DNA of 64,000 nucleotides from Actinomycetes bacterium (GTDB lineage Bacteria; Actinomycetota; Acidimicrobiia; Acidimicrobiales; Aldehydirespiratoraceae): positions 1 to 64,000 of the forward strand of contig JAJRXC010000035.1 in NCBI GenBank assembly GCA_024276495.1, given 5' to 3'. The notes beneath the pieces were generated by a model. That model was given only the letters and a program-made list of their open reading frames with translations. It was not told the DNA's origin and searched no databases. Below, in pieces: positions 1 to 3,728 of this stretch. Both the position numbers and the translations under genes were made by a program. Position 1 is the stretch's first letter. The number at the start of each line of letters is the position of its first letter.

Positions 1-708
1 CCGGCCCGGGCCGGCGTCTCCCAGGGCATCCGGGGCAGCCTTCTCATCGCCGCGATCGTGATGATGACGTTCCCCATCGGGATCGCCGGCGCGATCTATC
101 TCGAGGAGTACGCCGAGGACAACTGGCGGACCCGGCTCATCCAGGTGACCGTGCGCAACCTCGCCGGCGTGCCGTCGATCGTCTACGGACTGCTCGGTCT
201 GGCCGTGTTCGTCCAGGGGCTGCGCGGGATCACCGGAGGTTCGTCGGTCCTCGCCGCCGGGATCACGCTGGCGGTGTTGGTGTTGCCGGTGGTCGTCATC
301 ACCGCGGCCGAGGCGGTGCGAGCGGTCCCCGCGTCGCTGCGCGAAGGTGCCTACGGGCTCGGTGCCACCCAGTGGGAGGTGATCCGCTCGCAGGTCGTCC
401 CCGCCGCGCTTCCGGGGATCCTCACCGGCACCGTCCTGGCCGTCGCCCGGGCCATGGGCGAGGCGGCTCCGCTGTTGGTCATCGGAGCGGCCGGGTTCTA
501 CACGACGGGCAGCAACGACTTCCTCCACCAGTTCCAGGGCGCGTTCACCGCCCTGCCCATGAACATCGCCAACTTCGCCCGCCTGCCCGCCCAGACCTGG
601 CGTGGTCACGCCGCGGCCGCGAGTGTGGTGCTGCTCTTCCTCGTCTTCCTCGTCAATCTCGTGGCGATCATCGCCCGAGCCCGAATCTCGAAGAAACTCG
701 GACGCTGA
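1..708 (+). CDS. pstA: Phosphate ABC transporter permease PstA (5' truncated by window edge)
   Basis: Inner-membrane permease subunit of the PstSCAB phosphate importer. The frame is open from base 1, so the N-terminal helix or helices lie outside and 235 residues are visible. The stretch [15 protein letters not shown] followed by [15 protein letters not shown] is typical of PstA. The cytoplasmic EAA loop that docks on the ATPase is clear ([16 protein letters not shown]), as is [14 protein letters not shown]. About five hydrophobic segments remain, ending in a short basic tail. pstB starts five bases after the stop, so the two are co-transcribed. Family assignment is secure; the true start cannot be given. 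Confidence 0.93.
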
Positions 709-713
709 CACCC

Positions 714-1571
714 ATGACCGAAACCCCACCCCGCACCGGCGTGTCGATCGCGCTTCCCCGGAGCCAGGACCCCCCCGATGCCGACAGCTCGGCGGCGAAC
801 GTCTTCACCGTTCGGGACCTCAACGTGTACTACGCCGATCTCCGGGCCGTCTCCGATGTGAACCTCGATGTCCGCCAGCGGGAGATCACCGCGTTCATTG
901 GCCCGTCCGGCTGTGGCAAGTCCACCGTGTTGCGCTGTTTCAACCGCATGAACGACCTGATCGACATCGCCCGGGTCGAGGGCAGCGTGCGTTACCACGA
1001 CATCGATCTCTACGACCCCCGGGTCGACCCGGTCGCGGTGCGACGGAGAATCGGCATGGTGTTCCAGAAGCCGAATCCGTTCCCGAAGTCGATCCACGCG
1101 AATGTCGCGTACGGGCCGAAGGTCGCCGGGCAGAAAGGCAACCTCGACGAGGTCGTCGAGACGTCGCTGCGAAACGCCGGCCTATGGGACGAGGTCAAGG
1201 ATCGGCTCGACGATTCGGCCCTCGGCCTGTCGGGTGGTCAACAACAGCGACTCTGCATCGCCCGCGCGATCGCGGTGAACCCCGACGTGTTGTTGATGGA
1301 CGAGCCCTGCTCCGCGCTCGACCCCATCGCCACCGGCCGAATCGAGGAGCTGATGAAGGAGATCCAGAGCGACTACACGATCATCATCGTGACCCACAAC
1401 ATGCAGCAAGCGGCCCGGGTGAGCGATCGCACGGCCTTCTTCACCGCGGAGCTGGACGAGGACACCGGGCAGCGTCGGGGCAAACTGGTGGAGTTCGACG
1501 ACACCGGCGCGATCTTCTCCAACCCCTCCGACGAGCGGACCGAGGCGTACGTGACCGGCCGGTTCGGCTGA
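714..1571 (+). CDS. pstB: Phosphate ABC transporter ATP-binding protein PstB
   Basis: Cytoplasmic ATPase that powers phosphate import through PstA/PstC. The product is 285 residues, slightly longer than usual because of a proline-rich lead of about 35 residues. Walker A GPSGCGKS is at residues 63-70, the signature LSGGQQQR begins at residue 172, Walker B LLMDEP lies near 195 and the switch histidine is in [18 protein letters not shown] and [13 protein letters not shown] are PstB hallmarks. The ATG at 714 is chosen because it follows pstA by five bases; reading further upstream in this frame would overlap pstA. A PhoU-type gene follows 19 bases downstream, the normal pst order. Confidence 0.95.
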
Positions 1572-1590: not shown

Positions 1591-3033
1591 GTGAACGACA
1601 TCCGTACCAACCTCGACGAGCGGCTCAACCTCATCGAGACGAGGCTTCTCGAGATGACCGAGCTGGTGGCCGAGCGGGTCGGTCTCGTGACCTCGGCGAT
1701 GCTGGAGGGCGACGTCGACGCCGCCGACGCGCTGGTGGCCGGCGACGACGACATCGATCTCCTGTCGATGCAGGTCGAAGAGGGATGCATCGACACCCTC
1801 GTCCGGGAGCAGCCGGTCGCGTCGGACCTCCGCTTCGTGGTGGCGGCGCTGCACATGAACAGCGATGTCGAGCGGTCCGGTGATCTGGTCACGAACATCG
1901 CCAAGGCGGTCGGTCGCCTGCAGGGGGCCCACCCCGACGATCGGGTTCGTGACCTCGTCGTGCGGATGTCGGTGCAGGCGCAGTTGCTCATGCGCCGCGG
2001 TGCCGAAGCCTTTCGATCTCGCGACGCCGAGCTCGCGGAGTCGATCGACGAGCTCGACGATGTCCTCGACGATCTCCACTATCGCTACATCCAACACGTG
2101 ATCACCGATGCCCGGCGGGGCGACCTCGACCCGCAGCAGTCGTTGCAACTCGCCCTCGTGGGGCGGTTCTACGAACGCATCGGCGACCATGCGGAGAACA
2201 TCGGTGAACGAGTCCGCTACATCGTCGACGGTTGGATGCCGGAGGCCCAGGCGGCGGAACGGGCCCGGGCCCGGGCGTCGGGGGTCGAACCGGATCGTCC
2301 GACGAGAGGACTCGCCGTCATCGATTCGATCGCCCAGGAGCGAAGGGTCGACGCGATCCGGCGTGACTTCGTCGCCAACGTCTCGCACGAGCTGAAGACC
2401 CCGGTGGGGGCCATGAGCCTCCTCGCCGAAACGCTGGCCGGCGATCAGGATGCGAGCGATCGGTCCCGCCTCACCGACATGTTGCAAAAGGAGGCGAAGC
2501 GGGTCGAGAACATCATCGACGATCTGTTGGAGCTCACCCGTCTCGAAGAGGCAGCCGACGCGCGAAGCGATGTACGCGTCGACGAGGTCGTCGAGCGGGC
2601 TGTCGAGGCCGTGCAGGCGTTCGCCGACACCCATGGGGTGGCGGTCGCGGTGGTGGGCCTGCCGACCGATGAGGTGATTCGCGGGGAGCGCCGCCAACTC
2701 GTTCGCGCGGTCGCCAACCTGTTGGACAACGGTGTGCGCTACTCCGATGCGGGGCAGACCATCACGGTCTCCGTCGAACCGATCGAGGACGGCGTCGCCG
2801 TCACCGTCAAGGACGAGGGTGTCGGTATCCCCCGGGCCGAGCTCGAGCGGGTGTTCGAGCGGTTCTATCGGGTCGACCGGGCCCGGAGTCGGGAGACCGG
2901 GGGGACCGGCCTGGGTCTGGCGATCGTCCGTCATGTGGCCCAGAACCACGGAGGACGGGTGCTGGTGGAGTCGAAACCGGGTGAGGGGTCGAGTTTCACG
3001 ATGCAGCTTCCGAGGAGCGGCGGGGAGTCGTGA
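1591..3033 (+). CDS. PhoU-histidine kinase fusion protein
   Basis: A 480-residue protein joining two functions normally encoded separately. Residues 1-215 are a PhoU double repeat with MEEG-type helices (LEGDVDAADALVAGDDDID, FYERIGDHAENIGERVRYI). After a charged linker, residues 255-320 form a HisKA dimerisation domain with phospho-acceptor His266 in VSHELKTP. Residues 365-478 form an HATPase_c domain with N box NLLDNGVRYSD, G1 DEGVGIP, F box FERFYRV and G2 GGTGLGLAIV. No membrane helix, HAMP or PAS domain is visible, unlike canonical PhoR/SenX3. A good ribosome site (AGGAG, 1580-1584) precedes the GTG start. The stop overlaps the next gene, a response regulator. Inference: PhoU senses Pst status and controls the kinase within one polypeptide. 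Confidence 0.93.
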   Translation: MNDIRTNLDERLNLIETRLLEMTELVAERVGLVTSAMLEGDVDAADALVAGDDDIDLLSMQVEEGCIDTLVREQPVASDLRFVVAALHMNSDVERSGDLVTNIAKAVGRLQGAHPDDRVRDLVVRMSVQAQLLMRRGAEAFRSRDAELAESIDELDDVLDDLHYRYIQHVITDARRGDLDPQQSLQLALVGRFYERIGDHAENIGERVRYIVDGWMPEAQAAERARARASGVEPDRPTRGLAVIDSIAQERRVDAIRRDFVANVSHELKTPVGAMSLLAETLAGDQDASDRSRLTDMLQKEAKRVENIIDDLLELTRLEEAADARSDVRVDEVVERAVEAVQAFADTHGVAVAVVGLPTDEVIRGERRQLVRAVANLLDNGVRYSDAGQTITVSVEPIEDGVAVTVKDEGVGIPRAELERVFERFYRVDRARSRETGGTGLGLAIVRHVAQNHGGRVLVESKPGEGSSFTMQLPRSGGES

Positions 3034-3728
3034 GCGCGGCCGTGAGCGTGCTGGTGGTCGACGACGAGCCGGCGTTCCGGGAGGGGTTGCGTCAGGCGTT
3101 GACCCGGGAAGGGTTCGTCGTTCATCTGGCCGCCGACGGCGAGGAGGCCCTCGAGGTGTGGCGGTCACGGCGACCGGATCTGGTCCTGCTCGACGTGATG
3201 CTGCCCCGCATGTCCGGCATCGACGTGTGTCGCGAGATCCGCGCGGTCGACGAGACACCGGTGATCATGGTTTCGGCTCGCAACGAGGAGATCGACGCGG
3301 TCGTCGCGCTCGAGGTCGGCGCCGACGACTATGTCGCGAAGCCCTACCGGGTCCGCGAGCTCGTCGCTCGAATGCGCACGGTTCTTCGCCGCGCGGCGTC
3401 GAGCGGCCTGTCGGTCGGGGCGATCGACGCCGTGCTGGAGGCGGCCGACCTGGTGCTCGACCGTGAACGGCACGAGGTCGTACGGTCGGGCGTGTTGGTG
3501 CCGATGCCGCTCAAGGAGTTCGACGTGCTCGCGTTGTTGATGGAGAACAAGGGGCTGGTGGTCACCCGTCAGACCCTCATCGATCGGGTGTGGGGCTACG
3601 ACTATGTCGGCGACACGAAGACGCTCGATGTGCACATCAAACGGCTCCGGGCCAAGGTCGAGCCCGACCCCGACGCGCCGACCCTGATCGTCACCGTTCG
3701 TGGCCTCGGCTACAAACTCGTCGACTGA
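3030..3728 (+). CDS. PhoB/RegX3-type response regulator (OmpR family)
   Basis: DNA-binding response regulator of 232 residues, the expected partner of the PhoU-kinase fusion. The receiver domain spans residues 5-120, with the acidic pair in VVDDEPAF, phospho-acceptor Asp55 in LLDVMLPRMSG and the conserved Lys in DDYVAKPYRVREL. The winged-helix domain of the OmpR/PhoB class spans about 135-230, with DVHIKRLRAKVEPDP and VRGLGYKLV. The GTG start overlaps the kinase stop (GTGA), indicating translational coupling. By position at the end of a pst operon it should control phosphate-starvation genes, but no Pho box can be assigned because the operon promoter lies outside the window. Confidence 0.93.
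   Translation: MSAAVSVLVVDDEPAFREGLRQALTREGFVVHLAADGEEALEVWRSRRPDLVLLDVMLPRMSGIDVCREIRAVDETPVIMVSARNEEIDAVVALEVGADDYVAKPYRVRELVARMRTVLRRAASSGLSVGAIDAVLEAADLVLDRERHEVVRSGVLVPMPLKEFDVLALLMENKGLVVTRQTLIDRVWGYDYVGDTKTLDVHIKRLRAKVEPDPDAPTLIVTVRGLGYKLVD

What the first reader, a model, noticed from the sequence alone, without database searches (positions are those of the whole stretch)
1591..3033. PhoU fused to a histidine kinase in place of a membrane/PAS sensor
Seen: one 480-residue frame carries a full PhoU double repeat, then HisKA (His266) and HATPase domains, with no membrane helix, HAMP or PAS. Known: in E. coli and mycobacteria PhoU is separate and signals Pst status to PhoR/SenX3, whose PAS domain contacts PhoU. 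Inference: here the PhoU-kinase contact is covalent, giving a soluble one-piece phosphate-status kinase docked on PstB/PstA. This is a natural stripped-down version of a long-debated signalling step.
Basis: partly seen in the sequence, partly recalled or inferred. Interest (0 to 1): 0.78.

Follow-up and report, generated by a model that had tools for sequence, protein, structure and literature searches.

The report
Phosphate sensor fused to its kinase
In some little-known actinobacteria the phosphate-signalling protein PhoU is fused to the kinase it normally controls, replacing that kinase's membrane anchor and sensor domain, and some lineages keep the fusion although the phosphate transporter long thought to drive the signal was not found in their genomes.

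Summary
Window 1591-3033 is one uninterrupted 480-residue gene: two PhoU repeats, then HisKA (His266) and HATPase, with no TM helix, PAS or HAMP. It follows pstA-pstB and overlaps an OmpR-type regulator gene. The fusion was read in 20 genomes, one a single 4.48-Mb contig, so it is no assembly error. Named examples are Acidimicrobiia. In the same family, 27 unfused loci have pst genes then a separate phoU; in 25 a separate kinase with a hydrophobic, often PAS-bearing N-terminal part follows, the part the fusion lacks. No separate PhoR was found in 19 fused genomes searched. PHO boxes (GTTCAC repeats, 11-bp spacing) tie the operon to phosphate control.

'Docked on PstB/PstA' is not supported as a general rule. 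In five of 20 fused genomes (three losses on the kinase tree) PstC was not detected; they keep an intact fusion and regulator, divergent from nptA across a PHO-like box. I favour a soluble kinase/phosphatase gated by its own PhoU module reading cytosolic phosphate, with Pst contact optional. This fits recent M. smegmatis work on PhoU/SenX3, but sensing is untested here. New variant of a known kind.

The parts
1591..3033 (+). PhoU-histidine kinase fusion gene, 480 aa
   Evidence: ribosome-binding site
1645..1911 (+). PhoU repeat 1 (motif VERSGDLVTNI, residues 93-103)
1960..2214 (+). PhoU repeat 2 (motif RFYERIGDHAENI, residues 192-204)
2233..2358 (+). Linker (residues 215-256): GWMPEAQAAERAR helix, low-confidence stretch, then RGLAVIDSIAQERR, which resembles the end of the PAS part of unfused relatives
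2359..2550 (+). HisKA/DHp with phospho-acceptor His266 (HELKTP)
2686..3015 (+). HATPase_c (NLLDN, DEGVGI, GGTGLGL)
3030..3728 (+). OmpR/PhoB-type response regulator, overlaps the fusion by GTGA
714..1571 (+). pstB
   Evidence: TIGR00972 382.8 bits, cut-off 343.2
1..708 (+). pstA, 5' end cut by the contig start
   Evidence: TIGR00974 230.1 bits, cut-off 193.45

Best explanation
This is most likely the phosphate-regulon sensor kinase of its genome: a cytosolic PhoR/SenX3-type kinase whose membrane and PAS part has been replaced by PhoU. SHOWN by sequence comparison: the architecture, conserved catalytic and PhoU motifs, the operon, a PHO box, no other PhoR-like kinase found, and the fusion kept in genomes where PstC was not detected. 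INFERRED: when phosphate is ample the PhoU module (second-repeat motif RFYERIGDH) takes a bound state and holds the attached kinase pair in phosphatase mode, so the regulator is dephosphorylated. When phosphate falls, kinase mode wins and the phosphorylated regulator binds the GTTCACC repeats and switches on pst, nptA and the fusion's own operon. The PhoU module reads cytosolic phosphate (or metal-phosphate) itself; contact with PstB, where Pst exists, is an optional input.
For: Domains and motifs. The second-repeat motif is kept in 20 of 20 fused rows (RFYERIGDHA 18, RFFERIGDHA 1, RFYERLGDHA 1), including the five without PstC, all five of which also pass the Pfam cut-offs for PhoU, HisKA and HATPase. 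pst-fusion-regulator order conserved to families f20 and f42. Unfused relatives have separate phoU and kinase genes in the same place. PHO box: own genome C101:28696, one of 3 exact sites in 4.33 Mb against 1 for the reversed control pattern; 0 in 200 shuffles of the locus; PHO-like boxes before the fusion in 5 of 5 genomes without PstC, in three of which the first unit is GTTCAG. No other PhoR. Fusion kept without PstC. PMC12301784 (abstract, introduction and two sections seen): in M. smegmatis SenX3 needs its PAS but not its membrane anchor, and PhoU1 plus Pi shifts it to phosphatase without Pst.
Against: No biochemistry was found for any member. In M. smegmatis, SenX3 lacking both TM and PAS no longer responded to Pi, so the fusion must supply a different PhoU-kinase contact; the AlphaFold model has a low-confidence linker (223-278) and pTM 0.49, so no interface is defined. 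The second-repeat motif is just as conserved in unfused PhoU (27 of 27), so its conservation does not by itself argue for sensing in the fusion. pstB sits directly before the fusion in 15 of 20 fused genomes, even in G781/G782 whose pstC/pstA matches lie on another contig, which favours a PstB link there. The PhoU half looks faster-evolving than the kinase half in some comparisons of genomes without PstC. Most genomes are drafts, so absence of Pst is not proven for any one of them.
Confidence: 0.55

Rival explanations
1. Pst-docked one-piece kinase: the PhoU half binds PstB/PstA and passes transporter state to the attached kinase.
For: pstB directly upstream in 15 of 20 fused genomes. E. coli PhoU interacts with PstB and PhoR (PMC4423584, passages). 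G781/G782 keep PHO box-pstB-fusion-regulator although the pstC/pstA matches lie on another contig.
Against: In 5 of 20 fused genomes, three losses on the kinase tree, PstC was not detected and the fusion is kept.
Confidence: 0.25
2. Transporter-docked through the Na/Pi cotransporter: the fusion takes its signal from NptA and its separate PhoU-like partner (phoU2), encoded next door.
For: nptA lies divergent to the pst/fusion operon in the own genome, G777, G774, G789, G750 and G771, and directly divergent to the fusion in all five genomes without PstC. In S. aureus the PhoU domain of NptA affects PhoPR (PMC13170248, passages).
Against: No NptA was seen in the stretches read around the fusion in G781, G782, G004 and G139 (12-20 kb), nor in the roughly 10-kb stretches of G563, G629 and G788; phoU2 is a separate protein that could serve NptA itself.
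Confidence: 0.13
3. The PhoU half is only a dimerisation or localisation handle; the kinase is regulated otherwise or constitutive.
For: Low-confidence linker; PhoU half faster-evolving in some comparisons.
Against: Both PhoU repeats pass the Pfam cut-off in this protein and in the five Pst-less members, and the second-repeat motif is kept in 20 of 20.
Confidence: 0.06
4. Assembly or frameshift artefact joining phoU and phoR.
For: None found.
Against: 20 fused genomes including a single-contig one, shared linker, and the N-terminal part of the kinase is missing rather than out of frame.
Confidence: 0.01

Closest known systems
PhoR/SenX3/PnpS phosphate sensor kinases (TIGR02966, NF046044)
   Same: Kinase core (241-253 bits over the C-terminal part of the models), OmpR-type partner, PHO box, operon with pst
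   Different: No TM helix and no PAS; PhoU is covalent; whole-protein score under the curated cut-offs
PhoU (TIGR02135; solved homologues 1t72, 1xwm, 4q25)
   Same: Two repeats, both motifs, score over cut-off
   Different: Continued at the C-terminus into a histidine kinase; no chain listed from the PDB copy covers both halves
Other PhoU-containing fusions: NptA with a C-terminal PhoU domain (PMC13170248, passages) and the PhoU/TrkA_C protein on contig C59 of this genome
   Same: PhoU used as a built-in regulatory module
   Different: PhoU is attached to a transporter or to TrkA_C domains, not to the kinase that PhoU controls

Membership tests
PhoU | Curated full-length model TIGR02135 over cut-off | tested here: met
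   160.4 bits against 130.25, residues 7-214
PhoU | ExxxD-type motif in both repeats (motif recalled) | tested here: met
   VERSGD and YERIGDH in this protein; the first is changed in L113, L114 and L138 and not matched in 18 of 27 unfused PhoU rows
PhoR/SenX3 sensor kinase | HisKA and HATPase with catalytic motifs | tested here: met
PhoR/SenX3 sensor kinase | N-terminal transmembrane anchor | tested here: not met
   Maximum hydropathy 1.26 against 1.74-3.30 in the parts before the core of 25 unfused relatives
PhoR/SenX3 sensor kinase | Cytosolic PAS domain that contacts PhoU | tested here: not met
   No PAS match. Of 6 unfused kinases scanned, 3 have PAS over the Pfam cut-off, 1 just under it, 2 none listed
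PhoR/SenX3 sensor kinase | Curated whole-protein cut-off of PhoR or PnpS model | tested here: not met
   241.2 of 334.2 and 252.5 of 400 bits
PHO-regulon two-component system | PHO box of two 11-nt direct repeats at the target operon | tested here: met
   GTTCACCTGCTGTTCACC at C101:28696; S. coelicolor motif GTTCACC in PMC4415409 (passages)
PHO-regulon two-component system | Phosphate-dependent output through the cognate regulator | not testable with these tools
   needs biochemistry or genetics
Pst-PhoU-PhoR signalling complex | Pst transporter present wherever the kinase is | tested here: not met
   PstC not detected in 5 of 20 fused genomes; drafts, so by genome comparison only

The most novel reading that the evidence does not exclude
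PhoU itself is the phosphate sensor. In these bacteria a one-piece PhoU-kinase works with no transporter in the signalling step, and lineages that lost Pst but kept the fusion, its regulator and its PHO-like box are natural experiments that separate PhoU signalling from Pst, against the E. coli-based model.
Probability: 0.42. Interest if true: 0.82.

Novelty: new variant of a known kind. Interest (0 to 1): 0.64.

Why it matters
How PhoU informs PhoR, and whether Pst transport state or cytosolic phosphate is the signal, is disputed: E. coli work points to a Pst-PhoU-PhoR complex (PMC4423584, passages), recent M. smegmatis work to Pst-independent sensing by PhoU (PMC12301784, sections). A natural protein holding PhoU and kinase in one chain, kept in genomes with and without detectable Pst, lets this be tested with one purified protein and its adjacent regulator.

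Tried and rejected
Separate fusion events in each genus: rejected for family f1 plus the L058 genome plus f20, which form one clade in the kinase tree (97/97 with 71 rows; 99/96.8 with 53 rows) and in the PhoU tree (100/99, 54 rows). The PhoU tree carries a warning that the long branch of the f20 member may join falsely. G139 (f42) is unresolved; one origin for all 20 is not rejected (p-AU 0.293). L098 and L117 were left out of the kinase tree because their core matches were weak or partial; L107 and L135 have no kinase in the stretch read.

PAS-remnant test: an 8-residue profile from 48 unfused kinases gave fused scores of -5.5 to 4.5, above 96-99.96% of 9,136 background 8-mers but far below the unfused rows themselves (mean 19.1, lowest 10.8, not held out). 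Four unfused rows (L035, L098, L115, L122) were dropped for want of my H-box expression. It is supportive, not conclusive.

PAS in unfused relatives: over the Pfam cut-off in 3 of 6 scanned (L097, L105, L126), just under in L010 (21.6 against 21.8), none listed in L115 and L099.

Faster PhoU evolution after Pst loss: 10 comparisons with a Pst-less row gave Fisher p of 0.0004-0.43 (4 under 0.05); 5 controls gave 0.07-1.0. The outgroups were my choice and comparisons overlap: exploratory.

First-repeat motif as the Pst site: weakened, because 18 of 27 unfused PhoU rows, all beside pst genes, also fail my expression for it.

Fusions outside Acidimicrobiia: pattern scan of 84,980 species, 14 stretches, 8 real, 6 rejected on translation. 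The pattern finds 12 of the 20 known fused loci, so other taxa are not excluded. 396 genomes of the phylum at E <= 1e-75, at most 4 candidates scored per genome: only the own gene. Plasmids: 0 of 3,414 matching records have one place covering 80% of the query. A partly overlapping hit in G054 (query 95-475) proved on reading to be an unfused kinase with a hydrophobic N-terminus.

PHO box inside the window, one mismatch allowed: 0; the box lies on contig C101. A guess that G777 is the cultivated strain Hal317 was dropped (4,081,508 bp in PMC12263773, passages, against 4,481,363).

Papers on a PhoU-kinase fusion: the searches listed none whose title or shown abstract start reports one. Only open-licence papers are held and most listed papers were not opened.

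Full report
OBSERVATION. The frame at 1591-3033 (+) is open for 480 codons, has AGGAG before its GTG and overlaps the next gene by GTGA. Pfam finds two PhoU stretches, HisKA 257-320 and HATPase_c 366-475 plus weak overlapping HATPase families. NCBIfam gives full PhoU over its cut-off and PhoR/PnpS over the C-terminal part only. The phospho-acceptor is His266 in HELKTP. The predicted structure (8-row alignment, mean pLDDT 74.2, pTM 0.49) has a mostly confident helical PhoU part, a low-confidence stretch at 230-278 (and 223-225), and a kinase core; the 50 listed structural matches are to histidine kinases such as HK853, and no PhoU entry is among those 50. By sequence the two halves match solved PhoU proteins and solved kinases separately; no listed PDB chain covers both.

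SURROUNDINGS. pstA (cut by the contig start) and pstB precede the fusion and an OmpR-type regulator follows. The rest of the operon lies at the end of contig C101: pstS and pstC, with a Na/Pi cotransporter gene (nptA; PF02690, 132.6 bits) and a separate PhoU gene (53.0 bits) running the other way. In G777, a single-contig genome of the same genus, these stand in one row: phoU2-nptA, then divergently pstS-pstC-pstA-pstB-fusion-regulator.

DISTRIBUTION. With the whole protein as query, full-length matches occur in 3 of 198 genomes of the class (88 of 198 passed 1e-60, mostly by the kinase half) and in 6 of 395 (1e-78; overlapping draws), and only the own gene among 396 genomes of the phylum (1e-75). 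At most 8, 4 and 4 candidates were scored per genome. A DNA pattern spanning PhoU and HisKA, run over 84,980 species, gave 14 stretches of which 8 translate as the fusion. Seven of the 8 are titled Acidimicrobiia, Acidimicrobiales or Acidimicrobiaceae; the eighth, titled Actinomycetes, has the contig length of G782:C84 of the own family. Of 51 genomes of the own family (own included), 45 loci were read: 16 fused, 27 unfused, 2 cut at a contig end. The own locus was read apart; five genomes (G768, G776, G785, G787, G790) had no or only weak or fragmentary matches and were not read. With the own genome, G004, G139 and the genome of L058 this makes 20 fused genomes.

ORIGIN. All 27 unfused loci have pstB beside a separate phoU; 25 have a kinase gene next to it (L135 runs into the contig end, L107 shows none). 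In those 25, counted from the preceding stop, 151-217 residues (358 in L117, whose core match is partial) precede the kinase core, with a hydrophobic peak of 1.74-3.30, over 2.0 in 24 of 25. Of six unfused kinases scanned, five from the family and one from the class, three have a PAS fold over the Pfam cut-off, one just under, two none; where found, PAS_4 runs to residues 162-183, that is to just before HisKA. The fused proteins lack this part. Just before RRDFVANVSHE most keep (R)GLAVIDSIAEERRIDAI or the like, resembling the end of the corresponding part in unfused kinases, such as GALAVIEDISERRRLEAV of L010. That neighbouring phoU and phoR genes fused, with loss of the membrane and most of the PAS part, is inference from this. 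Kinase and PhoU trees each unite the fused proteins of family f1, the L058 genome and f20; the long-branched f42 member is unresolved and a single origin is not rejected. G778, assigned to the own genus, carries an unfused set that groups with genus g2 in both trees.

NO SEPARATE PhoR. A full-length unfused PhoR (from G778) was searched in 23 genomes. Unfused G075, G766 and G760 give 464, 274 and 275 bits over nearly the whole query. In 19 of 19 fused genomes the best match is the kinase half of the fusion (216-242 bits) and the next kinase in any of them is 135 bits or less. In the own genome the PnpS model gives 253 bits for the fusion and 191 for the next of 15 kinases.

PHOSPHATE CONTROL. 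The divergent nptA/pstS region of the own genome holds GTTCACCTGCTGTTCACC, two 11-base direct repeats, plus a further GTTCAC. GTTCACC is the most conserved PHO-box motif of Streptomyces coelicolor (PMC4415409, passages). The exact double repeat GTTCAYNNNNNGTTCAY occurs three times in 4.33 Mb, against one for the reversed control pattern, and in none of 200 shuffles of the locus. It also occurs before pst or the fusion in many, not all, of the related loci.

LOSS OF Pst. PstC is found in 15 of 20 fused genomes and not, at E <= 1e-15, in G775, G770, G780, G783 and G784 (93, 98, 94, 94 and 86% complete). Of these five only G783 has a PstB over the cut-off, near phoU2. In all five the fusion and regulator stand directly divergent from nptA with a PHO-like double repeat between them (GTTCAC first unit in G775 and G770, GTTCAG in the other three), and no pst gene was seen in the 16-20 kb read except G783's pstB. 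On the kinase tree these are three separate losses if regain is excluded. All five pass the Pfam cut-offs for PhoU, HisKA and HATPase. The first-repeat motif is altered in G780, G783 and G784, but it also fails to match in 18 of 27 unfused PhoU rows that lie beside pst genes, so no conclusion is drawn. The PhoU half looks faster-evolving than the kinase half in some comparisons (exploratory). In G781 and G782 the pstC and pstA matches lie on another contig while PHO box-pstB-fusion-regulator stand together. All 27 unfused loci lie beside pst genes, but this sample was not built to test Pst loss in unfused genomes.

HOW IT PROBABLY WORKS. In Salmonella, PhoU contacts both the PAS and the kinase domain of PhoR (PMC9239213, abstract). 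In M. smegmatis, SenX3 without its membrane part still senses phosphate, without PAS as well it does not, and PhoU1 with Pi pushes it to phosphatase in vitro; the RXXERXXDR/H motif of the last PhoU helix is proposed as the Pi site (PMC12301784). Here PAS and membrane part are gone, PhoU is attached, and that motif is kept with and without detectable Pst. The simplest account is a built-in PhoU phosphate sensor that biases its own kinase. Direct evidence of phosphate binding or kinase control is lacking, so confidence is moderate; Pst-docking and NptA-docking remain live rivals.

CHANGES ON CHECKING. 

Noticed in passing
G000 contig C79:63513 (L163, about 1501): A second exact PHO-box-like double repeat lies between two divergent genes with glutamine synthetase domains, suggesting phosphate-nitrogen cross-talk. 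The third site, on C91, lies within or beside ordinary coding frames and may be chance.
   Followed up: partly
L036 2730-3989 (-), G000 contig C59: A 419-residue protein with two PhoU and two TrkA_C stretches next to a membrane protein that looks MgtE-like by eye; PhoU as a module in another setting.
   Followed up: partly
L037 4825-6649 (-), G000 contig C101: Na/Pi cotransporter gene with a separate PhoU gene (phoU2), divergent from pstS. nptA is beside the fusion in all five genomes without PstC; phoU2 follows it in four, and in G770 the contig ends within nptA.
   Followed up: partly
L113, L114, L138 (first PhoU repeat): In the g395/g396 members without PstC the first-repeat motif ERSGD reads GRSAD or ERSAA while the second is intact; the motif also fails to match in 18 of 27 unfused PhoU rows, so its meaning is unclear.
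   Followed up: partly
L166 10744-11604 (-), G783: pstB over the family cut-off in a genome where PstC was not detected.
   Followed up: no
L174 and L175 (G781, G782): PHO box, pstB, fusion and regulator stand together although the pstC and pstA matches lie on a different contig and score differently from those of the other members.
   Followed up: partly
G778 (L115): A genome assigned to the window's own genus carries unfused phoU and kinase genes that group with genus g2 in both trees: replacement by transfer or a classification problem.
   Followed up: no
G785, G787, G790, G768: Genomes of genera that have the fusion, with neither PstC nor a full PhoU match, as if the whole module was lost or not assembled.
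   Followed up: no
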